Positions 15,438-60,013 of a DNA stretch of 64,000 nt are shown here, piece by piece. How positions within the stretch are numbered: position 1 is the first letter of the stretch; the number at the start of each line of letters is the position of its first letter. Both the position numbers and the translations under genes were made by a program. The notes beneath the pieces were generated by a model. That model made no database searches and was not told where the DNA came from. It saw nothing but the letters and a program-made list of their open reading frames with translations. This DNA is from Gelidibacter salicanalis (GTDB lineage: Bacteria > Bacteroidota > Bacteroidia > Flavobacteriales > Flavobacteriaceae): positions 62,001 to 126,000 of the forward strand of contig NZ_VORX01000009.1 of NCBI RefSeq assembly GCF_007997285.1. Direction: 5' to 3'.

Positions 15438-15668
15438 GAGGTTGTAGGTGGTAGGTTTGAGGTTTTAAGTTTCAGGTTAGAGGTTTCAGGTTTGAGTTTT
15501 AAGAGAGGACTGGAACCTGCCAGCTGAAAACTGAATACTGCTAACTGAGGACTGCCAACTGAATACTGAAAACTGCCTACTGCCAACTGCCTACTGAATA
15601 CTGCCAACTGAAGACTGAAAACTGCCAACTGAATACTGCCAACTGAAGACTGAAAACTGCCCACTGAA
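15438..15668. repeat. Heptamer array 1 (33 consecutive 7-bp units)
   Basis: The stretch can be cut into 33 unbroken 7-base words. The first nine or so are of the type (T/G/C)AGGTTT, then the words change to xACTGyy (AACTGAA, GACTGCC, TACTGAA, AACTGCC) without losing phase. The last unit abuts the stop codon of the ABC ATPase gene at 15669. Bases 15328-15437 before it hold no recognised feature. The frame open on the minus strand here is a by-product of the repeat. Confidence 0.85.
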
Positions 15669-16352
15669 CTAATTCCTCAAATCACTTTCAATCACGCCAT
15701 CGCGTAAACGGATAATGCGGGAGGCGCGTGCGGCCACGTCTTCCTCGTGGGTTACGACAATAACCGTATTGCCCGCTTTGTGAATGTCATCAAACAGATG
15801 TAAAATCTCTAAAGAGGTTTTAGAATCTAAGTTTCCTGTCGGTTCATCGGCGAGAATGATGGAGGGTTTGTTCACCAAGGCGCGGCCTACCGCCACACGC
15901 TGACGTTGACCTCCTGATAGTTCGTTTGGCTTGTGATGCACACGATCGGCCAGGCCAACTTCGGTCAGGACTTGCGTTGCACGCGCCTCACGGTCAGCTT
16001 TAGAGGCGCCGGCGTAAATCATGGGTAAAGCAACATTGTCCAAAGCGGTAGTTCTAGGCAATAAATTAAAAGTTTGAAATACAAAACCGATTTCTTTATT
16101 TCTTATTTCTGCCAATTCATCATCACTGAGTTTGCTGACATCCTGATTGTTCAGGATATAGGTGCCTGAAGTAGGAGTGTCCAAACAGCCCAAAAGATTC
16201 ATCAGAGTCGATTTCCCAGAGCCTGAAGGTCCCATAATGGCCACATAATCGCCACGTTCAATATCTAAATCGATGTCTTTTAAAACATAGACTGTTTCTG
16301 AGCCTAATTGAAAGTTTCTGACGATATTTCTGATGTGAATGACGTTATCCAT
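15669..16352 (-). CDS. LolD/MacB-type ABC transporter ATP-binding protein
   Basis: The 227-residue ATPase has Walker [10 protein letters not shown] (41-49), signature LSGGQ (145-149) and Walker B IILADE (165-170) followed by PTGNLD, which is typical of the LolD/MacB/FtsE group. These act on substrates in the inner membrane or periplasm (lipoprotein release, efflux, cell division). No permease gene lies next to it, so its partner is encoded elsewhere and the substrate is unknown. A heptamer array touches its stop codon. Confidence 0.9.
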
Positions 16353-16449
16353 GTGGTGGTTTCCTGATTAAATGCTTATGACAATCGCGACGTTTGCAGC
16401 TGCAAAATAAATGATTTACGATTCATATGACGTGTAACGGCGTAAGATG

Positions 16450-17220
16450 TTACACTCTAATTTTAAAATGTTCTTTTAATTGTTCTTTTCTAAAAAAGAC
16501 CAAGCCCCAATTATAGGTATCCACCGTAACCGTGACTTTAGGGTGGTTTTTGATGATGGTCCAAGCTTCTGTCATGCCTTTAGACCAGTAAATATCGTCA
16601 AATATGAATACCGAATCATTGTGGGCGGTAGGTACTAACATCTCGAAATACTTTAGGGTAGCCTTTTTGGAATGGTGGCCATCGAAGAAAATTAAATCCC
16701 ATGCTGGCTGTGGCAAACGCTGAATACTATCTTCAAACTGACCTTGGATGCAGTCAATATTAGACAGCTTTTGGCTCGAGAAGTTTTGACTGGCGAACTT
16801 GGACAATTGTGGACAGCCTTCAATGCTGATGATGTTAGTGTTCGGATTGGCCAGCGCCATAGCTTGGGTGCCGATGCCGAGGTTGGTGCCTAATTCTAAA
16901 ATAGTTCTTGCTTTAAAATACCGGACCAAACGGTAAAGCAACTTAGCATTTTTAAGATTAGTGCCGGAAGTTTTTGCAATAGCATTGACCCGACGTGTAT
17001 TGGTTTTAAAAACTTTGGAGCCCGAGCCGAAATCGGTTATCTGAATTTGATCGGTATTTTTAAGCAGCGTGTTGCGGTAGGCTTCAATATTGCTATAGGC
17101 AGCATGCTGTGATGGGTCATAAAAACACTTTGTAATCAAATTGTACACAAAAGGCGAATGCACTCCGTGTTGGTTACTTGATTGTAAAAGGAATTTTAGA
17201 TACGCTTGCAGTTGGTGCAC
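16450..17220 (-). CDS. Class I SAM-dependent methyltransferase
   Basis: The 256-residue protein has glycine-rich SAM-binding motif I TILELGTNLGIG (about 106-117), an acidic residue at the end of strand 2 (NIISIEGCP), and WDLIFFDGHHSK as motif IV. The arrangement resembles small-molecule O-methyltransferases. The substrate is unknown. The start is GTG at 17220, and no in-frame ATG precedes the conserved N-terminus (HSPFVYNL). A heptamer array lies just upstream of its start. Confidence 0.8.
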   Translation of the reverse strand: MHQLQAYLKFLLQSSNQHGVHSPFVYNLITKCFYDPSQHAAYSNIEAYRNTLLKNTDQIQITDFGSGSKVFKTNTRRVNAIAKTSGTNLKNAKLLYRLVRYFKARTILELGTNLGIGTQAMALANPNTNIISIEGCPQLSKFASQNFSSQKLSNIDCIQGQFEDSIQRLPQPAWDLIFFDGHHSKKATLKYFEMLVPTAHNDSVFIFDDIYWSKGMTEAWTIIKNHPKVTVTVDTYNWGLVFFRKEQLKEHFKIRV

Positions 17221-17261
17221 GGTGAGTGTGTAAGGGGTTTTGTTTTTATAGTTGATTCCGT

Positions 17262-17373
17262 TTTCAGTTGGCAGTTTTCAGTTGGCAGTTCTCAGTTGGC
17301 AGTTGGCAGTTTTCAGTCTTCAGTCCTCAGTATCCAGTATTCGGTATTCAGTATTGAGTATTCAGTATTCAAA
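17262..17373. repeat. Heptamer array 2 (16 consecutive 7-bp units)
   Basis: Sixteen unbroken 7-base words of the type NNNCAGT: TTTCAGT, TGGCAGT, CTTCAGT, ATTCAGT and others. This is the reverse complement of the ACTG words of array 1. It runs directly into the longer tandem block that starts at 17374. Confidence 0.85.
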
Positions 17374-18070
17374 AAAACGCTGATGACGCTGAATTAATGG
17401 ATTGGCGCAGAATCTTCTTGATGTATATCTTCTGTCGTCCTGAATCTTGGCTCTTGGCACCAACGTCATGTCTCTCTATTCTATGTTCTCTTCTCTATTA
17501 TCTCAATTTTAAAAGAACGCTGAGGACACTGATTTTATGGATTGGCACAGACGTTTCATAGTCTGTCGTCCTGAATCTTGGCTCTAGTCTCCAGCTCTCA
17601 GTCTTCAGTTGGCAGTCTTCAGTTCTCAGTATTCAGTTTAAAGAACGCTGATGACATTGATTTTATGGATTGACGCCGATATTTTCTAATAAATATAAAG
17701 TTCAATTTTACAGTCCGTCGTCCTGAATCTTGGCTCTTGGCTCTCTTCTCTCTTTTCTATGTTCTCTTCTCTCTTGTGTAACCTTTGTTATTTGAAAAGA
17801 ACGCAGATAACGCTGAATTTACTGATTTACGCAGAATCTTATTAAGGTTTACAGTCTGTCGTCCTGTATCTTGGCTCTTGGCTCTTGGCTCTCTTCTCTC
17901 TTTTCTATGTTCTCTTCTCTCTTGTGTAACCTTTGTTATTTGAAAAGAACGCAGATAACGCTGATTTTACAGATTTACGCAGAATCTTAATAAGGTTTAT
18001 AGTCTGTTGTCCTGATTCTTGGCTCTTGGCTCCAACATTTTGCCTCTCTTTTCTATCTTCTATTTTCTCT
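17374..18070. repeat. Five imperfect tandem copies of a 130-155 bp intergenic unit
   Basis: Each unit starts with AAAGAACGC(T/A)GATGACGCTG or a close variant, with AACGC at about 17375, 17516, 17643, 17800 and 17948. Each continues with a (TTTA)CGCAGAATCTT-like part, then TCGTCCTGAATCTTGGCTC, then pyrimidine words (TCTCTTC, TCTATGT) in 7-base steps. The last two units are nearly identical. A run of eight heptamers (17586-17641) sits inside the second unit. No gene is seen here. Confidence 0.8.
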
Positions 18071-18100
18071 TCATCCTCTTCTCCACATCAATAATGACGT

Positions 18101-19960
18101 CTAAGACTCCAACTTCTCTGACAATTCAAACCAACGTGCTTCTTTAACCGCAATATCATCGATTATTTTTTGTAAATCATCTGACAGCTTATTAATCTTA
18201 TCTTGAGACAATGAGGGGTCGAGAAATTTGGCTTCAAAGGCTTTTTTATCCAATTCGAGTGCTCTTATTTTACTGTTCAAGGATTTCAGTTCCTTTTGTT
18301 CATTGTAGGATAATTTCTCCGCATTATTCTTTTTTTGGTCGGTAGGTGCCGCTTCAACCTTTACAGGTTCAACATAAGGGGTCGACGCTTCATAATCGCG
18401 GTAGTCAGAATAATTCCCAGGGAAATCTTCAACCTCACCATTCCCTCTAAATACAAATAAATGATCGACAATCTTGTCCATAAAGTACCTGTCGTGAGAC
18501 ACCACTAACAAACAGCCTGGGAAATCCAAGAGGAAATCTTCCAAGACATTTAAGGTGACAATATCTAAATCGTTGGTAGGCTCATCCAGAATTAGGAAGT
18601 TCGGATTCTGAATCAGTACCGTACATAAATACAAACGCTTTTGTTCACCACCACTCAATTTCTCTACAAAATCATACTGCTTTTTTCGATCAAACAAAAA
18701 CTTTTCCAGAAGTTGGGAGGCACTAATTTGACGTCCTTTGGTAAGCGGAATAAATTCCCCAAACTCTTTGATGACGTCAATGACTTTCTGGCCTTCCTTA
18801 ATTTTGATTCCGTTTTGGGTATAATATCCAAATTTTACGGTATCGCCAATAACCACCTTTCCAGAATCGGGCGTGATGGTTTGGGTCAGCATATTTAAAA
18901 AAGTCGATTTTCCGGTGCCGTTCTTACCGATAATGCCAATGCGTTCGCCTGTTTTAAACACATATTCAAATCCGTCTAAAATGACTTTGTCTTTAAACGA
19001 CTTGGATACTTTATGAAATTCTACAATTTTACTGCCCAAACGCGCCATGTTAATTTCTAACTGAATTTTGTGGTCGTTGCGGCGTTGGTTCGCTTTGGCT
19101 TTAATGTCTTGAAAATCGTCAATTCTCGATTTAGATTTTGTAGTTCGGGCTTTCGGTTGACGTCGCATCCAGTCCAATTCCTTTTTAAACAATTGTTTGG
19201 CTTTTCCGGTCTCTACCGTTTCATTTGTAATACGGGCTTCCTTTTGTTCTAGGTAATAGGAGTAATTTCCTTTATACGTAAAGAGTTTGCCGTGGTCCAG
19301 TTCGATGATTTCATTACACACACGCTCTAGGAAATACCTATCGTGCGTTACCATAAACAAGGTCATCTGTGCTTTGGCAAAGTACTGCTCCAACCATTCA
19401 ATCATCTCTAAATCGAGGTGGTTGGTAGGCTCATCCAAAACCAAAAGATCAGGATTATTGATAAGTGCTGTTGCTAAGGCTAAACGTTTTTTCTGACCTC
19501 CGGATAGGGTTTTGATTTTTTGAGTGAGGTCGTCCAACTTTAGCTGCGATAAAATTTGTTTAAATCGCAATTCAAATTCCCATGCATTATGACGGTCCAT
19601 CCCTTCAAATGCTTTTTGATAAGCATCAGCATCATCTAAATTTAATAGCGCCTTTTCATAACTCTCTATGACTTTTAAAATGGGTAAATCCGATTTAAAA
19701 ATGGTGTCTTCAATCGTAAGTTCATCTTCAAATTGAGGCGATTGTGATAAAAATGACAAGCGTAAGCCTTTTCTAATCACCACTTGGCCATTGTCAGGCT
19801 GGTCCAATCCCGCAAGAATATTAAGGATGGAGGTTTTGCCACTTCCATTTTTTGCCACAAAAGCAATTTTATCATCCTTATGGATGCTAAAGGAAAGGTC
19901 TTCAAATAGCGGAGCATCGCCATAAGTTTTTGAGATGGATTCAACAGTTAAATAATTCAA
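18101..19960 (-). CDS. ABC-F family ATPase (Uup-like)
   Basis: The 619-residue protein has two ABC domains in tandem and no membrane segments. Domain 1 has Walker A AKNGSGKTS and LSGGQKKR; domain 2 has GKNGTGKST and LSGGEQKR. Both have the LDEPTNxLD Walker B. A charged linker joins them, and a C-terminal coiled coil (about 540-619) is as in Uup. ABC-F proteins act on ribosomes or, for Uup, on branched DNA; sequence alone does not decide. The start appears to be TTG at 19960 (MNYLTVESISK). Confidence 0.92.
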   Translation of the reverse strand: MNYLTVESISKTYGDAPLFEDLSFSIHKDDKIAFVAKNGSGKTSILNILAGLDQPDNGQVVIRKGLRLSFLSQSPQFEDELTIEDTIFKSDLPILKVIESYEKALLNLDDADAYQKAFEGMDRHNAWEFELRFKQILSQLKLDDLTQKIKTLSGGQKKRLALATALINNPDLLVLDEPTNHLDLEMIEWLEQYFAKAQMTLFMVTHDRYFLERVCNEIIELDHGKLFTYKGNYSYYLEQKEARITNETVETGKAKQLFKKELDWMRRQPKARTTKSKSRIDDFQDIKAKANQRRNDHKIQLEINMARLGSKIVEFHKVSKSFKDKVILDGFEYVFKTGERIGIIGKNGTGKSTFLNMLTQTITPDSGKVVIGDTVKFGYYTQNGIKIKEGQKVIDVIKEFGEFIPLTKGRQISASQLLEKFLFDRKKQYDFVEKLSGGEQKRLYLCTVLIQNPNFLILDEPTNDLDIVTLNVLEDFLLDFPGCLLVVSHDRYFMDKIVDHLFVFRGNGEVEDFPGNYSDYRDYEASTPYVEPVKVEAAPTDQKKNNAEKLSYNEQKELKSLNSKIRALELDKKAFEAKFLDPSLSQDKINKLSDDLQKIIDDIAVKEARWFELSEKLES

Positions 19961-20067
19961 AGTCTAATTTTTTTACAAATAACGGGAATATGTACAAGAA
20001 TACTGCATAGGGGGTGAGGAATAAAGAATTGAGTGGGGTAAGATGGTGGTGGGTGTGCTCTGTGATT

Positions 20068-20886
20068 AGTATTTAGTATTTAGAATTAAGTATTAAGTAT
20101 TAAGAACAGAGAACAGAGAACAGAGAACAGAGAAAAAAGAATAGAGAAAAAAGAATAAAGAATCAAGAATCAGGACGGGAGACGGGAGTCGGAAGACTGA
20201 AGACGGGAAATTTTGAGCTTGTAACGTAGAGGTAGATTGAATACTGCCAACTGAAGACTGCCAACTGAATACTGCCAACTGAAGACTGAGAATAGAGAAA
20301 AAGAATCAAGAATCAAGAATCAGGACGGGAGAGGGAATACTGAAGACGGGAAATTTTGAACATGTCACATAGCACTGAAGATTGAAGACAGCCAACTGAA
20401 TACTGAATACTGAATACTGCCAACTGAAGACTGCCAACTGAGTACTGAGTACTGAAGACTGAGAATAGAGAAAAAGAATCAAGAATCAAGAATCAGGACG
20501 GGAGAGGGAAGACTGAAGACGGAAAATTTTGAACATGTCACATGGCACTGAAGATTAAAGACAGCCAACTGAAGACTGAAAACTGAATACTGAGAAATGA
20601 GAACAGAGAGAGAGAAAAAGAATCAAGAATCAAGAATCAGGACGAGAGACGGAAGACTGAAGACGGGAAATTTTGAACTTGTAACGTAGAACGGTAGATT
20701 GAATACTGCCAACTGAATACTGAATACTGAATACTGAATACTGAAGACTGCCAACTGAAGACTGCCAACTGAAGACTGCCAACTGAAGACTGCCAACTGA
20801 AGACTGCCAACTGTAGACTGAATACTGATTACTGAATACTGAATACTGAATACTGCCAACTGAATACTGAAAACTGAATACTGAGA
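20068..20886. repeat. Heptamer array 3 with a higher-order block repeated four times
   Basis: Bases 20068-20214 divide into 21 unbroken 7-base words (AGTATTT, AGAATTA, AGAACAG x4, AGAATCA x2, AGACGGG and others), and 20705-20886 into 26 unbroken ACTG words. Between them a block reading AGAATCAGGACGG, then GAAGACGGGAAATTTTGA, then a short non-heptamer part (GTAACGTAGA or GTCACATxGCA) recurs at about 20165, 20310, 20485 and 20635. Long minus-strand frames through it are by-products. The array fills the space between the ABC-F gene and the promoter of the polysaccharide locus. Confidence 0.85.
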
Positions 20887-20950
20887 AACGCTGAACAAGG
20901 AATATAGAGATTGAAGGCTGCAGGCGTTTGACCGAAAAAAAGAAGATTTG

Positions 20951-20981
20951 TTTTGATATTGTTAGTGATAACTTATATTTG
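20951..20981 (+). promoter_or_regulatory. Bacteroidota-type promoter of the wza operon
   Basis: TTTTG (20951-20955), 18 bases, then TATATTTG (20974-20981), a full match to TAnnTTTG. Transcription would start near 20988, 15 bases before the ATG at 21003. This also argues against an upstream in-frame start at 20928. It is the only strong promoter seen ahead of wza-wzc-tviBC. Confidence 0.65.
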
Positions 20982-21803: not shown

Positions 21804-24287
21804 ATGGAAGACTACGAAAACGACTTTTCAGAACCAAGAGGTACTTATTTTGACTTTCGGGGCTATTTGTTTAAAGTGCTTAATCTTTGGAAGTTTGTCG
21901 TGCTCAGTGTGGCGTTCGCTTTAATCGTGGCTTATCTGATTAACGTTAGGAAGGAAAGTATCTATAAATTGAGTTCTCTGATTTCCGTAGAAAGTGATCA
22001 AAATCCGTTTTTTACCGCCAATACCAGCATCTCTTTTAACTGGGGTGGGGTTTCAGGGAAAGTAGGGAAAGTTCTCACGACGGTAAAAACCCGTACCCAC
22101 AATGAGCTTGTGGTAGATTCACTCCAATACTATGTTCAGTATTTGCAACAAGGCAAGTACCGGATGGAAGATATTTATAAAAATGCCCCATTTGTAGTGG
22201 CAATCGATAAAGCGAAAGGGCAAATCCTCAACAAACCTATTCAGATTAGAATTATAAGCGATTCTAAATTTCAGATGGTTATCGATTTTGAATCGAGCGG
22301 CTTTACGGTGCAGCGCTATACCGATAAGGATAAATTCCCTGCCAATTTTAAAGTAGGCGAGTTTTCAAAAACCTACAGTTTTGGAGAGCCCATCAATCTG
22401 CCATTCTTTAACGGGAAAATCACCCAGCGTCCGGGCGCGACTCTGGTGCCAGAGACGCATTTTTATGTGCGATTTCTTAATTTTGATGCTGTGGTCAGTC
22501 AATATCAAGGTGGGGTGATGATTGCGCCCTACTCCGGAAGTTCATCCTCCGTCCTGTCCTTGTCCCTGGCGGGAAGCAATAAGGCTAAAATCGTGGATTA
22601 TTTGAATGCTACCACCTCCATTTTAAGTAAGACAGAGCTTCAACGTAAAAATTTGTATGCTACCAATACCATCAAATTTATCGACAGCAGTTTAAATGCG
22701 GTTAATGACAATTTGAAGGATGTCACTGAAGAAATGAACAGCTTCCGAAAGCAAAACAAACTGTTTGATGTCACTGAAGAAATGGCCATTGTATCTGAAA
22801 AACTGAAAGCACTCGATTTAAACAGGGAAGAAGAACGCACCAAATTAAATTACCTCAATTCACTAGAAACCTATTTGCGTACCAAAACCGATTACACCAA
22901 AATTGCAGCGCCAACCTCAGTGGGCATCAATGAAGGTAATATTTTATCGAGTGTGGCAAAAATTACGGCGCTGGCCATTGAACGTCAAACCAAGGAATAT
23001 ACGGTTAAGGAAGGCAATCTTATTTTTAAGGATATCGACCGGCAGATTGATGCCGAAAAAAATGTGCTTCTGGAAACCGTCGGGAATACCAAGCGGACCA
23101 TAGGCCTCAATTTAAATAATATCAACAATAACATTGCCCGATTTGAAGGGCAATTAGGCAATTTACCGGAAGATCAGCAGGAATATTTAAAAATTCAACG
23201 CAAGATGGATATCAGCCAAGAGGCTTATAATATCTATTTGACCAAACGCGGTGAAGCGGCCATTGTAAAAGCAGCAAACGTGTCTGATATCAGTACGATT
23301 GATGAGGCTAAAGATATTGGTGGTGGGCGCATAGGTCCTAATAAGAACCTCAATTATATGATGGCCTTAATGCTGGGATTTTTTATCCCGATGTTTTTAA
23401 TTTTTGTCATTTTTCTTTTAGACAATACCATTCATGGGTCGGATGAGGTGGAACGTCTGTCTACAATTCCTATTATAGGACTTATTGGTAAATACAATTA
23501 TAAAAATAACTTGGTGGTTTTTGAAAAGCCCAAATCGGCTGTTTCAGAATCCTTTCGAGCCATCCGTTCCAGTTTGCAATTTATTTATAAGAAGCAAGAC
23601 AAGGAAGTGGGCAAAGGTAGGACCATCATGATCACCTCTTCGGTGAGTGGTGAAGGGAAAACTTTCTGTTCCATAAACATCGCCACGGCATATGCTTTAA
23701 CGGGCAAAAAAACCTTATTGTTGGGACTGGATTTGAGAAAACCCAAAATCTTTGGGGATTTCCAAATCACCAATGAAAAAGGCGTGGTGAATTATTTGAT
23801 TGGCGAAAGTTCATTTGATGAGGTTAAGTATACTTCCTTTATTGAGAATCTTGATGTGATTCCGTCAGGACCCGTGCCACCTAATCCCTCAGAATTATTA
23901 ATGGGGCATAGGCTAAAGGAGCTGATGGAATATGCGCGCCAACATTATGACATGATTGTGTTGGACACACCGCCCTTAGGATTGGTGACTGATGCCTTAG
24001 AGTTGACGCAATATGCGGATGCTACCTTGTTTATGGTGCGTTTAGACTATACTAAAAAAGGGATGTTGGCCTTAATTAATGCCAAGCATAAGATGGGAGA
24101 AGTTAAGAATATCAGTTTTGTCCTGAACTTCTACAAACATAAAACCAACCACAATTACGGTTATGGTTACGGCTACGGCTACGGTTATGGCTACGGCTAT
24201 GGGGTTTATGGCAATGCTTATCACGAGAGTAGCAGCAGACGCACCCTACTAAAACGCTTTAAGAAATTCATCCAAACCAATACTTAA
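21804..24287 (+). CDS. wzc: Wzc-type polysaccharide co-polymerase / tyrosine autokinase
   Basis: The 827-residue inner-membrane protein has a Wzz domain with membrane segments at about 28-46 and 515-535 and a coiled-coil-rich periplasmic part. A cytoplasmic BY-kinase domain follows (Walker A SGEGKT near 615, Walker A' LLGLDLRKP, Walker B MIVLDTPPLG). The tail has eight YG pairs in a row, forming the tyrosine cluster that is autophosphorylated in this family. It controls chain length and export together with Wza. The second gene of the wza operon. Confidence 0.95.
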   Translation: MEDYENDFSEPRGTYFDFRGYLFKVLNLWKFVVLSVAFALIVAYLINVRKESIYKLSSLISVESDQNPFFTANTSISFNWGGVSGKVGKVLTTVKTRTHNELVVDSLQYYVQYLQQGKYRMEDIYKNAPFVVAIDKAKGQILNKPIQIRIISDSKFQMVIDFESSGFTVQRYTDKDKFPANFKVGEFSKTYSFGEPINLPFFNGKITQRPGATLVPETHFYVRFLNFDAVVSQYQGGVMIAPYSGSSSSVLSLSLAGSNKAKIVDYLNATTSILSKTELQRKNLYATNTIKFIDSSLNAVNDNLKDVTEEMNSFRKQNKLFDVTEEMAIVSEKLKALDLNREEERTKLNYLNSLETYLRTKTDYTKIAAPTSVGINEGNILSSVAKITALAIERQTKEYTVKEGNLIFKDIDRQIDAEKNVLLETVGNTKRTIGLNLNNINNNIARFEGQLGNLPEDQQEYLKIQRKMDISQEAYNIYLTKRGEAAIVKAANVSDISTIDEAKDIGGGRIGPNKNLNYMMALMLGFFIPMFLIFVIFLLDNTIHGSDEVERLSTIPIIGLIGKYNYKNNLVVFEKPKSAVSESFRAIRSSLQFIYKKQDKEVGKGRTIMITSSVSGEGKTFCSINIATAYALTGKKTLLLGLDLRKPKIFGDFQITNEKGVVNYLIGESSFDEVKYTSFIENLDVIPSGPVPPNPSELLMGHRLKELMEYARQHYDMIVLDTPPLGLVTDALELTQYADATLFMVRLDYTKKGMLALINAKHKMGEVKNISFVLNFYKHKTNHNYGYGYGYGYGYGYGYGVYGNAYHESSSRRTLLKRFKKFIQTNT
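24156..24203 (+). repeat. In-frame hexanucleotide repeat encoding the Wzc YG tail
   Basis: Eight consecutive 6-base units (TACGGC, TATGGT, TACGGT and similar), each coding Tyr-Gly. Unit gain or loss keeps the frame and changes the number of phosphorylatable tyrosines. Confidence 0.85.
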
Positions 24288-27164: not shown

Positions 27165-27265
27165 TGGCATTGCGAGGAGCACACGCCCTTCAGGCGTCAT
27201 TGCCAGGAGCACACACCCTTCAGGGGTCAATGCGAGAAGCGTAGCGACGCGGCAATCTCATCAAT
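27165..27265. repeat. CATTGCGAGG repeats upstream of the GIY-YIG gene
   Basis: Three units of about 30 bases: CATTGCGAGGAGCACACG, CATTGCCAGGAGCACACA and CAATGCGAGAAGCGTAGCG. The first two each carry a small hairpin (ACGCC-CTTCA-GGCGT type), and the last ends in GACGCGGCAATCTCA. They begin within 10 bases of the tviC stop and end about 25 bases before the GIY-YIG start. Confidence 0.9.
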
Positions 27266-27287
27266 TAATGCTATTATTCTATTCATT

Positions 27288-27605
27288 ATGAAACCTAGTT
27301 TCGTCTACATCCTCACCAATAAGAACCACACCACCTTATATATCGGGGTCACTTCAAATATTGTCAATCGTATTAGGCAACACAAAGATAAATACTATCC
27401 TAAATCATTTACCGCGCGTTATAATCTCGACAAATTGGTGTATTATGAAGCCTTCCAAATGATCGGCGATGCCATAGGACGGGAAAAACAATTAAAGGCA
27501 GGAAGCCGAGCAAAGAAGATAGCGTTGATTGATAGTATAAATCCAGAATGGGTTGATTTATATGATGTGGTTAGAGCTGAGTTTGGGGATGGTGAGTTAG
27601 AATAA
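27288..27605 (+). CDS. Single-domain GIY-YIG nuclease
   Basis: This 105-residue protein is almost only a GIY-YIG domain: the VYIL strand with Y7, LYIG with Y18-G20, R28, H32 and the metal-binding glutamate E66 in GREKQLK, followed by the NPEWVDLY tail. All catalytic positions are present, so it is probably an active DNA nuclease. Its target is unknown. It is flanked on both sides by the same palindromic repeat family in a polysaccharide locus, with no functional link to sugar genes. It may be linked to the repeats rather than to the operon (inference). Confidence 0.88.
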   Translation: MKPSFVYILTNKNHTTLYIGVTSNIVNRIRQHKDKYYPKSFTARYNLDKLVYYEAFQMIGDAIGREKQLKAGSRAKKIALIDSINPEWVDLYDVVRAEFGDGELE

Positions 27606-27618
27606 TTTCTCCATTCCA

Positions 27619-28085
27619 GGGTCATTGCGAGGAGCGCACCCCAACCCGAGCGTCATTGCGAGGGAGGTACGACCGCGGCAATCTCATGATTAGGAGCTCA
27701 CAACCTAAAGATTGCCACGTCGCTCCTCCGTCGCTCCTCGCAATGACGGTACATAGGCGTCGCTCCTCCGTCGCTCCTCGCAATGACGATACGTAGGCGT
27801 CGCTCCTCCGTCGCTCCTCGCAATGACGTGGTGCAGGGGTCATTGCGAGGAGCACACCCCAACCCGAGCGTCATTGCGAGGGAGGTACGACCGCGGCAAT
27901 CTCATGATTAGGAGCTCACAACCTAAAGATTGCCACATCGCTCCTCCGTCGCTCCTCGCAATGACGATACGTATGCGTCACTCCCCTGTCACTCCTCGCA
28001 CTGACGTAGTGTGAATGTTATCGCGAGGCGCGCACACCCATTCCGGTGTCATTGCGAGGAGCGCAGCGACGCGGCAATCTCAAAA
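27619..28085. repeat. CATTGCGAGG palindromic repeat island
   Basis: Two nearly identical units (27619-27748 and 27838-27966, about 130 bases) run from GTCATTGCGAGGAGC through GCGGCAATCTCATGATTAGG to AAGATTGCCAC and CTCCTCGCAATGAC. Each is therefore a long inverted repeat with an off-centre loop. Between them are two more CGTCGCTCCTCCGTCGCTCC arms (27750-27830), and a further unit ends at 28085 in GCGGCAATCTCA. Frames reading HCEERSD or SLRGA through it are by-products. The family is known from many bacterial genomes by such translated traces. Confidence 0.92.
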
Positions 28086-29413: not shown

Positions 29414-30274
29414 ATGATACCACAAGATCAATGGTTATATACCATTTCTTCTAAACATAAACTCATTGACCTTAATTTTAAGGAAATTTGGCGCTATAGA
29501 GATTTGCTGATTCTTTTTGTAAAAAGGGATATAGTTACGGTCTATAAGCAAACCATTTTAGGGCCTTTATGGTATATCATTCAGCCTTTGTTTACGGCAG
29601 TCATTTTCACCCTGATTTTCAATAACCTCGGACAGATTTCCACCAATGGTGTGCCACCGTTTTTATTTAACTTGGCAGGCATCACAGCATGGAACTATTT
29701 TAGGGAATGCCTCACCGGAACCTCCAGCACCTTTACCTCTAATCAGGGTATATTTGGGAAAGTGTATTTTCCAAGAGTCATTATGCCCTTGTCCGTGACC
29801 ATCTCCAACCTTTTAAAGTTTGGAATTCAGTTGGGTATTTTTATCGGGTTTTACATTTATTACGCTTTTCATGGGCAGACTTTTGGCTTTAACAGCCATA
29901 TTTTTTTACTCCCCGTGTACATTGTTATGATGGCTTTATTGGGCTTGGGCTTGGGCATGATCATTTCCTCCATGACCACCAAGTATAGAGATTTAACCGT
30001 ATTGGTGGGGTTTGGCGTGCAGTTATTGATGTACATATCAGCGGTTCCTTATCCGGTAAGTGAGGCAAAAGCCAAATTTCCGAGTACTGTAGCCCTCCTT
30101 GTCGAATACAATCCCTTGACCCAAATTATAGAAGGCTTTAGAGTGATGCTTTTGAATACGGGAGCGTTCAGTTGGTTTGGCTTTGGATATACTTTAGTGA
30201 TTAGCATCGTGTTGTTTTTAATAGGATTAGTTATATTTAACAAGACGGAGAAAACGTTTATAGACACGGTTTAG
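29414..30274 (+). CDS. wzm: ABC-2 type polysaccharide export permease (Wzm type)
   Basis: The 286-residue membrane protein has about six membrane segments and begins with the amphipathic stretch typical of Wzm/TagG (ELISSKHK-like start, FKEIWRYRDLLILFVKRDI). It moves lipid-linked glycan across the inner membrane with an ATPase partner. That partner (wzt) is 400 bases downstream, separated by a repeat island. An imperfect promoter (TTTTG, 22 bases, TATATTAG at 29384-29391) lies just upstream. Confidence 0.88.
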   Translation: MIPQDQWLYTISSKHKLIDLNFKEIWRYRDLLILFVKRDIVTVYKQTILGPLWYIIQPLFTAVIFTLIFNNLGQISTNGVPPFLFNLAGITAWNYFRECLTGTSSTFTSNQGIFGKVYFPRVIMPLSVTISNLLKFGIQLGIFIGFYIYYAFHGQTFGFNSHIFLLPVYIVMMALLGLGLGMIISSMTTKYRDLTVLVGFGVQLLMYISAVPYPVSEAKAKFPSTVALLVEYNPLTQIIEGFRVMLLNTGAFSWFGFGYTLVISIVLFLIGLVIFNKTEKTFIDTV

Positions 30275-30360
30275 AAGTTGAAATTGAAACTGAAGTTGAA
30301 AAATGATGAAATGGGAAAAGAAAAAAGAGAGAAGAGACATGAGACTAGAGATAAGAGAAT
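30275..30360. repeat. Short hexamer and heptamer word runs
   Basis: Directly after the wzm stop come GAAGTT/GAAATT/GAAACT hexamers, then 7-base words (GAGACAT, GAGACTA, GAGATAA, GAGAATA). They are shorter versions of the word arrays elsewhere in the window. Confidence 0.6.
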
Positions 30361-30394
30361 AGAGAAAATCGGGATAATCGAGTTGGTTTGTTAG

Positions 30395-30625
30395 TATGAC
30401 CCCACCCCGAGCGTCATTGCGAGTGAGGTACGACCCGACCCCGGCGTCATTGCGAGGGAGGTACAACCCAACCCGGCGTCATTGCGAGGGAGGTACGACC
30501 GAAGCAATCTCAAGGTTGGACAGTCCCAACCTAAAGATTGCCACGTCACTCCTAGGGTCGCTCCTCGCAATGACAATAACCATTGCCACGTGGTCCTACA
30601 GCGCTCCTCGCAATGACGGAACGGA
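30395..30625. repeat. CATTGCGAGG palindromic repeats between wzm and wzt
   Basis: Three direct GCGTCATTGCGAG(T/G)GAGGTAC units are followed by GAAGCAATCTCA, a small central hairpin (GGTTGG-ACAGT-CCCAACC), AAGATTGCCACGTCACTCC and two inverted CTCCTCGCAATGAC arms. The layout is the same as the 27.6-28.0 kb island, with a different centre. Confidence 0.92.
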
Positions 30626-54791: not shown

Positions 54792-55918
54792 AATTGGCGA
54801 TATTTACATTAGTGCAGCACAGTTGTAAAAAGCAACAGTATTATGGCTATGCACCATATGTTAATGAAATGAATCTTTGGGGCAATTACGTTGATGAGCT
54901 GATTGTTGTAGGTATTAAAAAACCAAGCAATAAAGTAGAGGGTATTGATACCGCTTATCACCATAAAAAACTAACATTTGTTCCGGTGCCTAATTTTAAT
55001 ATTTTGGGACTTGCGTCTGTTTTTAAAACACTTTTTAAGGTACCGTATATTTTTGTTAAATGTGTCCAAGTGATGCATCAAGCCGATCATATCCATTTAA
55101 GATGTCCTGCAAACGTGAGTCTCGTAGCCTGTTTTGCCCAAATCTTTTTTCCAAATAAAAAGAAATCTACCAAATATGCGGGTAATTGGGATCCGAAGAG
55201 CAATCAACCTTGGACCTACAGATTGCAGCAAGCCATCTTGCGCAACACTTTTTTGACTCGCAATATGCAAGTCTTGGTGTACGGCGAATGGCCAAATGAA
55301 ACGAAAAATATTCAGCCTTTTATCTCGGCGACGTATTATGAGGATGAGAAAATCCCCTTTAAGCCTAAGAATTATAAGCAAACTTTGAGTTTTGTGTTTG
55401 CTGGAGCTTTGGTGGTCGGTAAACGGCCTTTGTTGACCATTCAAATCATCGAGAGCTTGCATAAAAAAGGAATTTCCGTCATCTTGCATATGTACGGCGA
55501 CGGCCCTTTAATGCCGGAATTGCAAGACTATGTCAAGAAGAACAGCTTGGAGACTGTTGTTTTTCTTTACGGCAATCAGGATAAAAGTGTGGTTAAGGAC
55601 ACTTTAATGGACGCCCATTTTAATATTCTGCCCTCTAAAAGTGAGGGCTGGCCAAAGGCGGTTGCCGAAGGCATGTTCTTTGGATGTATCCCCATTGCAA
55701 CACCTGTTTCCTGCGTTGGCTGGATGCTCGGCGAAGGCACCCGAGGCATTTTAATCGCACCCGAAGTGGAAACGGCAGTTTCACAAATTGTGACTGCCTT
55801 ACATAGCGCTGACTTAAATAGGATGGCCCAAGAGGCTTTAACATGGTCACAACACTACACGTTTAATCGGTTGGAGGCTGATATAAAGAGGGTGTTAGAG
55901 GGAACTTATTCTTATTAG
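54788..55918 (+). CDS. GT4-type glycosyltransferase
   Basis: The 376-residue GT-B enzyme has HLRCPANVSLVA in the N-terminal half and PSKSEGWPKAVAEGMFFGCIPIATPVS in the donor domain, a GT4-type motif with E-x7-E spacing. The stop codon is followed within eight bases by heptamer array 4. Specificity unknown. Confidence 0.87.
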   Translation: MKLAIFTLVQHSCKKQQYYGYAPYVNEMNLWGNYVDELIVVGIKKPSNKVEGIDTAYHHKKLTFVPVPNFNILGLASVFKTLFKVPYIFVKCVQVMHQADHIHLRCPANVSLVACFAQIFFPNKKKSTKYAGNWDPKSNQPWTYRLQQAILRNTFLTRNMQVLVYGEWPNETKNIQPFISATYYEDEKIPFKPKNYKQTLSFVFAGALVVGKRPLLTIQIIESLHKKGISVILHMYGDGPLMPELQDYVKKNSLETVVFLYGNQDKSVVKDTLMDAHFNILPSKSEGWPKAVAEGMFFGCIPIATPVSCVGWMLGEGTRGILIAPEVETAVSQIVTALHSADLNRMAQEALTWSQHYTFNRLEADIKRVLEGTYSY

Positions 55919-55925
55919 TGGCAGG

Positions 55926-56114
55926 GGTCAATTGGCAGGGTTCAGTTGGCAGTTTTCAGTTGGCGGTTTTCAGTTGGCGGTTTTCAGTTGGCGGTTTTCA
56001 GTTGGCGGTTTTCAGTTGGCGGTTTTCAGTTGGCGGTTTTCAGTTGGCGGTTTTCAGTTGGCGGTTTTCAGTTGGCGGTTTTCAGTTGGCAGTTTTCAGT
56101 TGGCAGTATTCAGT
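55926..56114. repeat. Heptamer array 4 (27 units, mostly a 14-bp doublet)
   Basis: Twenty-seven unbroken 7-base words alternate TTTCAGT with TGGCGGT, or with TGGCAGT at the ends. The 14-bp doublet is nearly perfect through nine copies, so this array looks more recently expanded than the others. Two long + frames through it are by-products. Bases 56115-56280 after it hold no recognised gene or promoter. Confidence 0.9.
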
Positions 56115-56280
56115 TTTAGTGGGTGGTTGTGGTATGAATGAGATGAGGGAGAATTTGCTATATGGCTGCGTTCTTAACGGGGAGCGGGCAGGCTGGTAAT
56201 GATGATCTTAAAAATCTAATGGCGTGATGAGCAATCCAAAATAACCTTAGCTAATAATTAATACATTAAAGAATAGACCT

Positions 56281-57354
56281 ATGCGTGTTCTGCAATTAAT
56301 AGATAGTTTGGAAGCTGGAGGAGCGGAACGGATGGCGGTCAATATGGCCAATATGCTTTCTGAAACTGTTGAGCGCTCCTATATTTGTGCCACACGACAG
56401 GAAGGCTTATTGAAAGCGACTATAAAGCCTGAAGTGTCGTATGTGTTTTTAAATAAGCAGCGTGCATTGGATTGGGCTGCAATTTCCAAATTAAGGCGGT
56501 ATATCTTAGAGGAGAAAATTGACATTATCCACGCACATTCGACCTCCTTTTTTATGGCAATACTTATGAAATGGGTACTTCCAAAATTGAAAATTATTTG
56601 GCATGACCATTACGGCGACAGTGAAAATTTGAAAAATCGTAAATATGGTGTGCTAAAGTTCTGTTCTACCTACTTCTCCTTGATTATAAGTGTTAATACC
56701 GATTTGAAAAATTGGGCACACAGCCATTTGAATTGTAAAAAGGTAGTCTATTTGCCTAATTTTGTAGTTCAGGAAAAGGATCTGCATAAAGTAACGCAGC
56801 TAAAAGGCATTTCTGGGAAGCGGATTTTATGCTTGGCGAATTTGAGGGCTCAGAAAGATCATCATAATTTGTTAAAAGCTTTTAAATTGGTACATAAACA
56901 GTACCCTGAATGGACGTTGCATTGTGTGGGTCAGGATTTTAAGGATCGCTATTCAGATTCGGTTTATCAATTGGTAACAGCTTTGGATCTGGAGCAGCAG
57001 GTATATTTTTATGGCAGCTGCTCCGATACAAACGCTATTATTGGGCAGGCCGATATTGGAATCTTATCCTCTTCCTCAGAAGGTTTGCCATTAGCCCTAT
57101 TGGAATACGGTCAAGGGCAATTGCCCATTGTGGCTACCTCTGTAGGCAATTGTGTGAGCGTTATTCCTGAAGCATGCCGTGAGTTTCTGGTGCCGCCAAA
57201 CAACCCTGAACTTTTGGCGGAACAACTGATGGTTTTGATTTCTGATGGCATCTTGCGACAACACACTGGAGATTTGATTCATCAGCATGTCATGAAACAT
57301 TTCTCAGCTTTAACGGTAAAAGAGAAATTAATGTCGTTTTATACCGAACTCTAA
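56281..57354 (+). CDS. GT4 glycosyltransferase
   Basis: The 357-residue GT-B enzyme has LIDSLEAGGAERMAVNMANML, the GAERM acceptor loop of GT4, YLPNFV, and SSSSEGLPLALLEYGQGQLPIVAT as donor motif. The protein length is usual. It opens a short operon with the polymerase-like gene and another GT4 gene. Specificity unknown. Confidence 0.9.
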   Translation: MRVLQLIDSLEAGGAERMAVNMANMLSETVERSYICATRQEGLLKATIKPEVSYVFLNKQRALDWAAISKLRRYILEEKIDIIHAHSTSFFMAILMKWVLPKLKIIWHDHYGDSENLKNRKYGVLKFCSTYFSLIISVNTDLKNWAHSHLNCKKVVYLPNFVVQEKDLHKVTQLKGISGKRILCLANLRAQKDHHNLLKAFKLVHKQYPEWTLHCVGQDFKDRYSDSVYQLVTALDLEQQVYFYGSCSDTNAIIGQADIGILSSSSEGLPLALLEYGQGQLPIVATSVGNCVSVIPEACREFLVPPNNPELLAEQLMVLISDGILRQHTGDLIHQHVMKHFSALTVKEKLMSFYTEL

Positions 57355-57385
57355 AAAATTACACTATTTTGCATCCCCTTGATAC

Positions 57386-58786
57386 TTGAGTCCCATGAGC
57401 GCCAAACAACGCTACCGTTATCGCTTTACCAATGATGCTTACGTCGCATTGATTGTGCTGCATATTATTATGGGCATTTTCATCAATCTGCTCCCTGAGT
57501 TTTCCACATTGTATTTTGCTGTGGTCTGTGGGTTTTTTATATTCAAAATCATTGTAACGCCACAACGGGAAAAGGTAATTTGGGTACTATTCGGTGCATC
57601 CTATTTTGTAGCTGCTGAATCTCTGTTTAGAATGACAGGAGGTGGCCTGTTTTATGAATTCTCTAAGTATTTTGTGATACTATTAATGGGGATGGGGATG
57701 TTTTATGATGGCATTTCTGGTAAAGCGTATCCGTATTTTATCTATCTCATTTTATTAGTTCCGGCTGTAGTTGTGGCATCTACCACCTTAGGCTATGAGC
57801 TGAATTTTAGAACTAGTGTGGCCTTTGTGTTGAGCGGGCCAGTATGCCTAGGAGCTTCAGCATTGTACTGTTATAATAAAAAAGTCAGTAAAGAGGTGCT
57901 CCTGCAGATAGTAGCGTGTATGAGTTACCCTATTGTAACCATGACAACTCATTTGTTTCTATTTAACCCCAGCGTTAAAGAGGTGCTGACTTCTACAGGA
58001 TCAAATTTTGCCACATCAGGTGGTTTTGGTCCTAATCAAGTATCTACCTTACTAGGTCTAGGCATGTTTGCTTTAACAGTGCGGTTTTTTCTAAAATCGC
58101 GAACCTTATTTTTAAAGATTTTTAATATGTTGCTTTTGGCGGCGGTATCCTTTAGAGCTTTGGTAACCCTGAGTAGAGGAGGCGTTTTTGGAGCGTTAAT
58201 CATGATTGCAGCATTTTTAGTAATTATTTATGGGGTCTCTAAATACCGACAAAAACAACAAATTATGGTGTCCGTGTTTCTCCTTATTGTGATAGGGTTT
58301 ACAACTTGGACCATTAGTTTAAATCAATCGAGTGGTTTGGTGGGCAACCGTTATTCTAATGAGGATGCTTTGGGAAGGGAGAAAAAAGACATATCTACAG
58401 GCCGTTTGGAGTTGTTTGTACATGAGTTTGAAGGGTTTAAGGATAATCCTTTTTTAGGGGTTGGTGCCAGCGGTATGAAGCAGGCACGTTTAGAAGAAGA
58501 TGGCAATATTGTCGCTTCTCATAATGAAATTAGTCGCTTACTATCCGAGCATGGCCTATTAGGCGTATTAATTTTAGTTATTTTAATTTTTAAACCATTA
58601 GATATCAGGAGTACAAACCGTAATAATATCTTTTTTTATTCCTTTTTGGGATTTTGGTTCGCGACCATTAACCATTCCGCTATGCGGATTGCGGCGCCTG
58701 CTTTTTTATATGCGCTCGCACTTTTACATGTAACCAATGAAAAACCTCCTCTACGTCGGAAACCATCTCCAGAGCTCCCAGCGTAA
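57386..58786 (+). CDS. O-antigen polymerase/ligase-like membrane protein (Wzy/WaaL superfamily)
   Basis: The 466-residue protein has about 11-12 membrane segments and a large loop containing SRGGVFGAL and the Wzy_C-like region FLGVGASGMKQ then SHNEISRLLSEHGLLGVL, where the HNxxxxxxxExG pattern is typical of the superfamily. It would polymerise repeat units or ligate glycan in the periplasm. Sequence does not separate polymerase from ligase. The next gene starts 50 bases before its end. Confidence 0.82.
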   Translation: MSPMSAKQRYRYRFTNDAYVALIVLHIIMGIFINLLPEFSTLYFAVVCGFFIFKIIVTPQREKVIWVLFGASYFVAAESLFRMTGGGLFYEFSKYFVILLMGMGMFYDGISGKAYPYFIYLILLVPAVVVASTTLGYELNFRTSVAFVLSGPVCLGASALYCYNKKVSKEVLLQIVACMSYPIVTMTTHLFLFNPSVKEVLTSTGSNFATSGGFGPNQVSTLLGLGMFALTVRFFLKSRTLFLKIFNMLLLAAVSFRALVTLSRGGVFGALIMIAAFLVIIYGVSKYRQKQQIMVSVFLLIVIGFTTWTISLNQSSGLVGNRYSNEDALGREKKDISTGRLELFVHEFEGFKDNPFLGVGASGMKQARLEEDGNIVASHNEISRLLSEHGLLGVLILVILIFKPLDIRSTNRNNIFFYSFLGFWFATINHSAMRIAAPAFLYALALLHVTNEKPPLRRKPSPELPA

Positions 58787-59768
58787 CGCGAGTTACAGCA
58801 CTGTTTTAGGGCCTTTGTTAGCGAAAAGTGGTTATAAAATCCGTTATACCTCGCGTATAGACAATAAGGCGCTACGGCTTATGGATATGCTTTGGACGAC
58901 CTTAAGGACGAAGAACACAACAGATTTGGTGTTGATTGACACCTATAGCACCCAGAATTTTTATTATGCCGTAATGGTGAGTCAGCTGTGCCGACTCCTG
59001 AAGCTGCCCTATATCCCCATTCTTCACGGGGGCGATTTGCCCCATCGTTTAAAGAATTCGCCTAAATTGAGCAACCTGCTTTTTGAAAATGCGTTTGTGA
59101 ATGTCTCGCCATCACTGTACTTAAAGGCACATTTTAACCAGTATGGTTTCCAAAACGTGGTGCATATTCCAAACACTATTGCCCTGGCAAATTATCCCTT
59201 TGATAAAAAAACCTTTGATGCGCCCCGATTATTATGGGTGCGTTCCTTTTCCGAAATTTACAATCCTGAGTTGGCCATTCAGGTGCTCAATGAACTTAAG
59301 AATCGTGGGTATCCTGCCACGTTGTGTATGGTAGGCCCGGATACAGATGGGAGTTTGGCTAAAGTCAAAAAATTGGCCGATACCTTAAATGTTGAGGTTA
59401 TTTTCACGGGTAAACTTTTAAAATCTGATTGGATTTCGATATCCAAAGAATATAATGTATTTATTAATACTACCAATTACGATAATACGCCGGTGAGTGT
59501 CATTGAGGCCATGGCACTGGGACTTCCTGTGGTGTCCACAAATGTGGGTGGCATGCCCTATTTGATCAAAGACGGTGTCGAGGGGTTGTTAGTGTCTCCA
59601 AACGACAAAATAGCAATGGCAAATGCCATTTGCACAGTATTAGACGCCCCCTCTCGAACCGCAACGATGACCATAAACGCGAGACACAAAGTTGAGCAAT
59701 TTGATTGGGAGAAGGTGAGAGGGCTTTGGGAGGAGGTGTTGAGGATGAGAAAGGAGTACGGAAAATAG
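58737..59768 (+). CDS. GT4 glycosyltransferase
   Basis: The 343-residue GT-B enzyme has PILHGGDLPHRL, VSPSLYLKAHF, FINTTNYDNTPVSVIEAMALGLPVVSTNVGG and a C-terminal HKVEQFDWEKV helix, all standard for GT4. It starts at an ATG inside the last 50 bases of the polymerase-like gene, in another frame, so translation is probably coupled. Its stop runs directly into heptamer array 5. Confidence 0.9.
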   Translation: MKNLLYVGNHLQSSQRNASYSTVLGPLLAKSGYKIRYTSRIDNKALRLMDMLWTTLRTKNTTDLVLIDTYSTQNFYYAVMVSQLCRLLKLPYIPILHGGDLPHRLKNSPKLSNLLFENAFVNVSPSLYLKAHFNQYGFQNVVHIPNTIALANYPFDKKTFDAPRLLWVRSFSEIYNPELAIQVLNELKNRGYPATLCMVGPDTDGSLAKVKKLADTLNVEVIFTGKLLKSDWISISKEYNVFINTTNYDNTPVSVIEAMALGLPVVSTNVGGMPYLIKDGVEGLLVSPNDKIAMANAICTVLDAPSRTATMTINARHKVEQFDWEKVRGLWEEVLRMRKEYGK

Positions 59769-60013
59769 AGAAAAGAAAATAGAGAAGAGAAAATAGAGAA
59801 GAGTTGAGCGCGAAGGAAATTTTTCGGAAGTGGCTATGGTAAATGGCGCACTATATTTTAATACTGAATACTGAATACTGAATACTGAAAACTGAATACT
59901 GAATACTGAGGACTGAATACTGAATACTGAGGACTGAAAACTGAGGACTGAAAACTGAGGACTGAAAACTGAGGACTGAAAACTGAGGACTGAAAACTGA
60001 ACAGACAACAGAC
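59762..60013. repeat. Heptamer array 5 (22 unbroken units plus a purine-rich lead)
   Basis: Bases 59860-60013 divide into 22 unbroken 7-base words (AATACTG, AGGACTG, AAAACTG alternating, then AACAGAC twice). A shorter run of AGAAAAG/AAAATAG/AGAAGAG words lies at 59766-59800, starting at the stop codon of the GT4 gene. Confidence 0.85.

What the first reader, a model, noticed from the sequence alone, without database searches (positions are those of the whole stretch)
15438..60013. A family of strictly 7-bp-periodic, word-changing arrays fills intergenic spaces
Five large arrays (15438-15668, 17262-17373, 20068-20886, 55926-56114, 59860-60013) and short runs (17586-17641, 30320-30350, 59766-59800, 61772-61799) can be cut by eye into unbroken 7-base words. 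In array 1 the words change from xAGGTTT to xACTGyy with no loss of phase over 33 units; in array 3 they go AGTATTT, AGAATTA, AGAACAG, AGAATCA, AGACGGG over 21 units. So the period is kept while the word drifts or is exchanged, unlike normal microsatellites. Cyanobacterial STRR heptamers are the closest known thing I recall, but those have one consensus. Three heptamers equal 21 bp, two helical turns, so a role in DNA bending, in binding a phased protein, or in slippage/recombination is possible.
Basis: partly seen in the sequence, partly recalled or inferred. Interest (0 to 1): 0.7.

Follow-up and report, generated by a model that had tools for sequence, protein, structure and literature searches.

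The report
Seven-base repeats aimed at gene edges
Stretches of repeated seven-letter DNA words between genes, a repeat type already known in bacteria, often sit right up against gene ends in a fixed orientation in this bacterium, in relatives and in samples from distant phyla, so their placement does not look random.

Summary
The arrays are real and have period 7. In 400 kb of the same genome, lag 7 gives 20 segments, lags 14 and 21 give 19 each, and the other lags from 4 to 22 give 0-2. "Strictly unbroken" holds for array 1 but not for array 3.

The kind is known: heptamer repeats, including mixed-word arrays in related genera (PMC4679880, PMC4692102).

New here is a polarity rule. The core ACTG plus three variable bases occurs in 15 of 38 arrays of the sampled genome. 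The 3' end of the ACTG strand tends to abut a gene: a stop codon lies within 25 bases in 84 of 135 cases, against 13 of 121 at the 5' end. Within co-directional gene pairs, position depends on orientation (p = 3e-13). Neighbouring inverted pairs point outward, 26 to 0. Arrays with other words follow a matching rule: beside stop codons the strand pointing at the gene has C over G in 32 of 33 genus cases. A 119-stretch, many-phylum sample shows the same preferences.

Most likely these are locally born 7-nt slippage arrays whose growth or survival beside genes is strand-biased. The cause of that bias is not shown.

The parts
15439..15666 (+). Array 1: AGGTTTG-type words, then ACTGNNN words; the ACTG 3' end abuts the stop codon of an ABC transporter gene (15669-16352, minus)
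   Evidence: 2 bases between the last ACTG and the stop codon; the same block order by eye in 2 congeners
17256..17371 (-). Array 2: ACTGNNN words on the minus strand, pointing at the start of a methyltransferase gene (16450-17220, minus)
   Evidence: (45 bases)
17569..17643 (-). Short ACTGNNN run inside the same intergenic region
17713..17927 (-). Two segments of AGAGAAG/AGCCAAG-type words in a 148-bp tandem unit, in the intergenic region that ends at the stop of an ABC-F-like gene (18101)
20054..20210 (+). Array 3a: AGTATTT, AGAACAG, AGAATCA and AGACGGG word series
   Evidence: no array at the orthologous site in G013 and G244, a shorter AATAGAG/AATCAAG array in G299
20243..20884 (+). Array 3b: higher-order units with ACTGNNN blocks, phase shifts and non-periodic spacers; lies upstream of a polysaccharide-export gene
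30308..30368 (+). Purine-rich GAATAGA-type run downstream of the gene that ends at 30274
55943..56117 (-). Array 4: mostly alternating ACTGAAA/ACCGCCA; on the plus strand degenerate CAGT-like units begin directly after the stop codon of a glycosyltransferase gene (ends 55918)
59745..59803 (+). Array 5a: AAAATAG/AGAGAAG words that run over the TAG stop of a glycosyltransferase gene (ends 59768)
59858..60017 (+). Array 5b: ACTGNNN words pointing at the start of a sugar-transferase gene (60133); by eye part of one compound array with 5a in congeners
61771..61804 (+). Short AAACTCC run

Best explanation
The arrays are local heptamer repeats. They are born in place in non-coding DNA and gain and lose units in 7-base steps, presumably by replication slippage. 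Words drift by point mutation while the period is kept. SHOWN: 7-base copy-number differences at orthologous sites; presence and absence between congeners; a strong preference for non-coding DNA; edges that often coincide with the stop codon, less often lie near the start codon, of one neighbour; a preferred orientation (ACTG 3' end towards the gene; beside stop codons C-over-G on the strand that points at the gene); variation confined to 3 of 7 positions in most ACTG arrays tested. INFERRED: slippage is the source of the steps; arrays expand or survive until selection on a coding sequence stops them; and the process that makes or keeps them treats the two strands differently, which gives the polarity. 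The ACTG core is either favoured by that process or kept by selection. Which of these, and through which enzyme, is not shown.
For: Period specificity. Orthologous arrays at the same place with the same orientation but different copy number and words; for example, before the same start codon, 12 in-phase CACCNNN units of which 7 are CACCCAA in G000, 18 copies of CACCTAA in G013 and none in G244. Different words at different loci of one genome, for example (ACTGACT)n and (ACTGCTC)n in G205, which fits local birth rather than dispersal. Non-coding: 4559 of 4741 array bases. Stop codon within 25 bases of the ACTG 3' end: 13/18 own genome, 14/20 congeners, 10/15 family, 47/82 cross-phylum; of the 5' end: 1/16, 1/18, 1/17, 10/70 (pooled Fisher p 2e-18). 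Start codons: 26/90 against 4/86 (p 1e-5). Co-directional gene pairs: CAGT-sense arrays sit near the upstream stop (median relative position 0.08, n 64), ACTG-sense arrays nearer the downstream start (0.64, n 66), p 3e-13. Inverted pairs within 300 bases: 26 outward, 0 inward, 17 of them cross-phylum. Purine-rich non-ACTG arrays: 35/60 against 0/31 on the mirror side. C>G on the strand that points at a stop codon: 29 of 29 decided cases (n 30) and 32 of 33 in the genus; 47 of 60 decided (n 70) and 23 of 25 decided (n 26) cross-phylum. Single CAGT or ACTG motifs after 451 array-free stop codons are not enriched (47 and 39, expected 48.3 each), so the bias belongs to arrays and not to single motifs. 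Column test: 11 of 15 ACTG arrays have variation confined to 3 columns at p<0.05, against 5 of 23 other arrays.
Against: A directional growth front predicts a gradient of unit homogeneity along the array; none was found (3' half against 5' half more homogeneous: genus 18 to 13, p 0.47; family 1 to 3; cross-phylum 16 to 28, p 0.10). Plain slippage does not explain polarity or a 4+3 pattern. At start codons the C-over-G rule is not significant in any of four groups (2 to 7, 9 to 2, 18 to 9, 9 to 4). The rule has exceptions: cross-phylum, 13 of 70 stop-adjacent ACTG edges have CAGT pointing at the gene, and 7 of 11 divergent-pair or 12 of 47 convergent-pair arrays...: 12 of 47 convergent cases and 6 of 11 divergent cases go against it. 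Stop-codon register with the array is seen only where the detected array already covers the stop codon; where it begins downstream there is no excess (16 of 64 against 16.8 expected). With whole compound arrays instead of ACTG blocks the asymmetry is weaker: 91/124 against 38/109. The 5'-side extension of ACTG blocks by other words is clear only among congeners: 5'/3' extensions 15/11 own genome, 19/0 congeners, 7/4 family, 63/24 cross-phylum. Congener arrays are partly orthologous and several cross-phylum stretches come from one organism, so counts are not fully independent.
Confidence: 0.5

Rival explanations
1. Ordinary neutral heptamer slippage with no strand-biased step: the 7-base preference comes from the polymerase (the idea of Mrazek et al. 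2007, as cited in PMC4679880), and position is only where selection tolerates it.
For: 7-base steps and turnover; non-coding location; few arrays in divergent regions (1 of 75 divergent, 7 of 75 convergent, 20 of 317 co-directional intergenic regions hold an array).
Against: Tolerance alone is symmetric, but orientation predicts position within the same type of gene pair and inverted pairs are 26 outward to 0 inward. Uniform mutation does not confine variation to 3 columns.
Confidence: 0.18
2. Arrays are binding sites for a regulator that acts on RNA or DNA near gene ends, as PMC4679880 proposes for TAACTGA next to start codons.
For: Constant core with variable bases; core differs less than NNN between congeners (74/731 against 192/474 positions, flank 285/921, biased because any unit aligns with any other); arrays near start codons prefer ACTG in sense.
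Against: Next to stop codons the mRNA would read CAGU, not ACUG, so one RNA-binding protein does not easily explain both. Single motifs after stop codons are not enriched. The array-flanking genes examined (10 proteins of the window) are of several unrelated families. Arrays with other words obey a matching rule at stop codons.
Confidence: 0.14
3. Arrays are seeded at stop codons: the heptamer that contains the stop codon is duplicated, which leaves the protein unchanged, so words inherit T, A and G letters and become G-over-C on the sense strand.
For: TAG is over-represented at stop codons beside arrays: 20 of 32 in the own genome against 149 of 725 among all genes counted, p 1e-7 (duplicates removed); with congeners and family 40 of 75 against 241 of 1148. 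Units such as AGAATAG run over the stop codon. Non-ACTG stop-adjacent words hold a stop triplet in sense in 36 of 57 against 18 of 57 antisense. TAG in register with CAG in 24 of 71 cases at distance 0 or more.
Against: CAGT arrays hold a stop triplet no more often in sense than antisense (39 against 43 of 86). The register signal is absent when the detected array begins downstream of the stop codon, and the register counts are partly circular. Arrays next to start codons are not explained. The cross-phylum TAG excess is smaller (43 of 103 against 184 of 652, p 0.001).
Confidence: 0.14
4. A dispersed mobile or copied element that inserts at gene ends.
For: Similar word order (purine-rich, then AATCAAG, then ACTG) by eye at several non-orthologous loci; higher-order units of 148 and 173 bp.
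Against: Different loci of one genome carry different pure words; order at orthologous loci is explained by descent, with intermediate words such as GAATAAC, GAATACC, GAATACT. No search for a mobile gene family was made, so this is weakly tested.
Confidence: 0.04

Closest known systems
TAACTGA heptamer direct repeats of Beggiatoaceae, Cyanobacteria and some Bacteroidetes (PMC4679880; abstract and sections 3, 7, 8, 10, 24 read)
   Same: Same ACTG core and period; mixed-word intergenic arrays in Gramella and Aequorivita; indels mostly in 7-nt increments between two Cyanothece strains; in one Beggiatoaceae genome most sets are forward and close to a start codon
   Different: The paper fixes one word and reports a very limited phylogenetic distribution, with a start-codon function suggested. 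Here the core with free NNN is found in stretches from many phyla, and arrays abut stop codons in reverse orientation more often than start codons
GGGAATC and GGGGA(C/T)T heptamers of Xanthomonas and Nostoc (PMC4692102; passages and sections 10, 11, 16 read)
   Same: Heterogeneous heptamers with constant and variable positions; Xanthomonas repeats are almost exclusively nearer the 5' neighbour ORF (average 28 against 160 nt) and 70-75 convergent pairs are reported per genome, which matches the mirror rule for purine-rich words found here
   Different: Those are studied as G-quadruplex sequences of one word family; the sections read make no link to ACTG arrays or to a general polarity. The Nostoc repeats have few pairs
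Cyanobacterial STRR heptamers (Calothrix; mentioned in PMC4692102, original papers not read)
   Same: Tandem heptamers
   Different: Polarity not tested for them here as a class
Long simple sequence repeats of prokaryotes (Mrazek et al. 2007, known only as cited in PMC4679880 and PMC4692102)
   Same: [quoted passage not shown] slippage linked to a 7-nt polymerase contact
   Different: No strand polarity relative to genes is described in the passages seen

Membership tests
Heptanucleotide simple sequence repeats (long SSR, STRR type) | Tandem units of 7 bases, more than chance | tested here: met
Heptanucleotide simple sequence repeats (long SSR, STRR type) | Mainly non-coding | tested here: met
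   4559 of 4741 array bases outside predicted genes
Heptanucleotide simple sequence repeats (long SSR, STRR type) | Copy number changes in whole units between relatives | tested here: met
   (between species; strains not tested)
TAACTGA repeats (MacGregor 2015) | Exact word TAACTGA | tested here: not met
   in G000 the commonest NNN after ACTG are CCA, AAT, AAG, AAA, AGG, CCT; ATA (the TAACTGA word) is the commonest only in the cross-phylum set
TAACTGA repeats (MacGregor 2015) | Forward orientation just before a start codon | tested here: inconclusive
   26 of 90 within 25 bases on the 3' side against 4 of 86 on the 5' side, but in the own genome only 2 of 19, and stop-codon sites are commoner (84 of 135); start positions are predicted
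Phase-variation SSR | Unit number switches a reading frame or promoter of a surface gene | not tested
   Arrays lie almost wholly outside predicted genes; expression is not testable with these tools
G-quadruplex heptamers (GGGAATC type) | Four or more G-tracts | tested here: not met
   By eye on the words printed: no GGG in the ACTG units; short AGACGGG stretches only

The most novel reading that the evidence does not exclude
Heptamer arrays of many different words, in many bacterial phyla, follow one polarity rule set by gene boundaries and not by the words: ACTG points into genes, and after a stop codon the sense strand is G-over-C. This would mean that one widespread, strand-specific process makes or keeps period-7 arrays at gene edges and favours an ACTG core, and that the start-codon and G-quadruplex stories in print are two views of it.
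Probability: 0.4. Interest if true: 0.75.

Novelty: new variant of a known kind. Interest (0 to 1): 0.56.

Why it matters
Heptamer repeats have been described in scattered bacteria, and the two papers read here leave their role open. A preferred orientation towards genes, seen here with several words and in stretches from many phyla, turns the question into one that can be tested: reverse an array beside a gene and see whether it is unstable or harmful. It also argues against reading these arrays as featureless spacers or as small open reading frames. The ORF listed at 55918-56199, for example, lies on the stop-poor CAGT strand of array 4.

Tried and rejected
DNA bending by 21-bp phasing: lag 21 is no stronger than 7 or 14; no bending calculation was made. 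A-tract anchor at the array end: A-runs at the 3' against 5' flank 9 and 3 of 37 (own genome), 7 and 4 of 31, 6 and 4 of 33, but 9 and 9 of 147 cross-phylum, so dropped. One-ended growth: no homogeneity gradient. Functional single motif after stop codons: not enriched. Register with the stop codon looked strong but is limited to arrays whose detected stretch covers the stop codon, so it is not used as independent evidence. The TAG count did not remove duplicates between overlapping stretches; it was repeated with duplicates removed. Conservation of the core between congeners is reported with its alignment bias. The ORFs 15395-15664 and 55918-56199 are taken as artefacts of the stop-poor CAGT strand; this is a judgement, not a test. 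Rows dropped before counts: array stretches with runs of N; duplicate array sequences within a set; arrays inside predicted genes (5 ACTG and 2 purine, cross-phylum); arrays of ambiguous purine content (10 genus, 2 family, 22 cross-phylum; dropped uncounted), arrays without a predicted gene on both sides or with flanks summing to under 10 or over 1500 bases (188 of 256 blocks used). Start-codon positions come from the most upstream ATG of open frames and are less exact than stop codons. The start of the polysaccharide-export gene was set by hand and differs between calls (20928, 20981, 21003).
Full report
WHAT WAS CHECKED. The window is positions 62001-126000 of contig C24 of a 3.78 Mb genome (G000) in 24 contigs. 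A lag scan of 20 systematic 20-kb stretches of the same genome shows that the effect is specific to 7 and its multiples: 20 segments at lag 7, 19 at 14, 19 at 21, and 0-2 at the other lags from 4 to 22; the simulated control gives none at lag 7. The pattern (ACTGNNN)3ACTG has 316 places in the genome, against 3 for the reversed control. In the family sample it occurs in 114 of 299 genomes; period 8 with the same core occurs in 10 of 299. The reversed control is non-zero in 52 of the 299 genomes by my own reading of the table, so GTCA-type heptamers exist too, led by one genome (G084).

WHAT THE WORDS LOOK LIKE. In 924 kb of the genome, 38 arrays pass the threshold; 15 hold ACTGNNN units, read on one strand, and 23 do not. 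The others are mostly purine-rich on one strand (AGAATAG, AATCAAG, GGAGTTAG) or words such as CACCCAA. In ACTG arrays, variation is concentrated in three neighbouring columns (11 of 15 arrays at p<0.05; other arrays 5 of 23). Array 1 keeps phase through its change of word. Array 3 does not: it is built of higher-order units of 173 and 144 bases with spacers and phase shifts.

RELATIVES. Nine genomes of the genus, the own one included, were found. Eight relatives share the order of the four genes from the ABC transporter gene of array 1 to the polysaccharide-export gene; the gene on the other side of array 1 was found in four of the eight. Array 1 has the same two-block order, by eye, in G000, G013 and G244, with different words and copy numbers. 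Array 3 is absent from G013 and G244, whose intergenic regions are shorter; of four further relatives printed, G299 has a short array of related words there and G300, G302 and G303 show none by eye. At further loci, arrays are kept in place and orientation and differ by 7-base steps, while one (L103:12385-12493) is absent from both relatives compared. At the site of array 5 both congeners have a nearly continuous compound array that passes through intermediate words (GAATAAC, GAATACC, GAATACT) to ACTGAAT; in G000 the middle is no longer periodic. I take this as evidence that word change is drift inside one array.

POLARITY. In the genus sample other words were found only 5' of the ACTG block in 12 clusters, only 3' in none and on both sides in 3, with 3 clusters of both orientations and 9 without extension. 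A later count with whole stretches is weaker (5'/3' extensions 15/11, 19/0, 7/4 and 63/24). I then measured distances to predicted genes and repeated this with stop codons, which are exact. A stop codon facing the array lies within 25 bases of the ACTG 3' end in 84 of 135 cases and of the 5' end in 13 of 121 (p 2e-18). Start codons show the same side preference, 26 of 90 against 4 of 86. Purine-rich arrays without ACTG show the mirror image, 35 of 60 against 0 of 31. Context is controlled: within co-directional gene pairs CAGT-sense arrays lie at the upstream stop (median 0.08 of the way, n 64) and ACTG-sense arrays nearer the downstream start (0.64, n 66). In convergent pairs the ACTG 3' end is nearer in 35 of 47 (p 0.001), in divergent pairs in 5 of 11. 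Pairs of opposite arrays within 300 bases point outward 26 times and inward 0 times (3 own genome, 5 congeners, 1 family, 17 cross-phylum). It was selected for ACTG but not for position or orientation.

A SIMPLER FORM OF THE RULE. For arrays that abut a stop codon, the strand pointing at the gene has more C than G in 29 of 29 decided ACTG cases (n 30) and 32 of 33 other cases in the genus, and in 47 of 60 decided (n 70) and 23 of 25 decided (n 26) cross-phylum. At start codons this composition rule is not significant (2 to 7, 9 to 2, 18 to 9, 9 to 4), though ACTG rather than CAGT points at the gene (9 to 0 in the genus, 20 to 3 cross-phylum). The 40 bases after 451 array-free stop codons show neither motif enrichment nor G-over-C (C 0.161, G 0.153), so the rule belongs to arrays.

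MECHANISM. Local birth and 7-base slippage explain period, turnover, location and word drift. They do not explain polarity or the ACTG core. I tested three ideas. An advancing end should leave a gradient of unit similarity; there is none. Seeding at the stop codon is suggested by an excess of TAG stops beside arrays (own genome 20 of 32 against 149 of 725 among all genes counted, p 1e-7) and by units that run over the stop codon, but the register test fails for arrays that begin downstream of it. A regulator binding site is hard to square with opposite mRNA sequences at the two gene ends. I therefore commit to slippage arrays limited by genes plus a strand-biased step of unknown nature, at 0.5.

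COMPARISON WITH PRINT. PMC4679880 (abstract and sections 3, 7, 8, 10, 24 read; [quoted passage not shown] PMC4692102 (passages and sections 10, 11, 16) describes Xanthomonas GGGAATC repeats that are almost exclusively nearer the 5' neighbour ORF and form convergent pairs. Both fit the rule found here, but the sections read do not state it. Seven full-text searches listed no paper whose title or abstract start does; the library lacks most subscription journals. The kind is therefore known, and the general polarity is, as far as these searches show, new.

LIMITS. Gene calls are open frames, not annotation. Congener arrays overlap in ancestry. Own-genome sampling covers about a quarter of the genome, mostly two contigs. 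Strain-level variation, expression and protein binding were not testable. The family name of the organism comes from no call.

Noticed in passing
window 27166-28061 and 30446-30617: Sixteen copies (up to 1 mismatch; 0.01 expected) of a GTCATTGCGAGGAG repeat in both orientations in two clusters; the first flanks a small GIY-YIG nuclease gene (27288-27605).
   Followed up: partly
window 17376-17967: Five AACGCTGATGACGCTGATTT-like sequences (up to 3 mismatches; 0.01 expected), two of them in a 148-bp tandem unit beside array 2; similar sequences stand by eye in the same intergenic region of several congeners.
   Followed up: partly
window 61580-61643 and 30274-30301: Two hexamer arrays (TTGAAA/GAAATT type) downstream of genes, not far from the heptamer runs.
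   Followed up: no
L106:14880-15120 and congener loci L274, L275: A palindromic CCTGCCTCCGCAAAATGCTGCGGACGGGCAAG-like element interrupts the same CAGT array, twice in G000 and once in each of two congeners.
   Followed up: no
L033, L040, L045, L051: ACTG arrays directly before what looks by eye like a tRNA gene in four other family genomes, masked DNA nearby in two of them, so RNA genes may also be edges.
   Followed up: no
G084: One family genome has many GTCANNN places (132 and 31) but few ACTGNNN ones (0 and 19), so the preferred core can differ between species.
   Followed up: no
window 24156-24202: A coding repeat TACGGCTATGGC inside the large ORF 21804-24287 beside the polysaccharide-export gene.
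   Followed up: no
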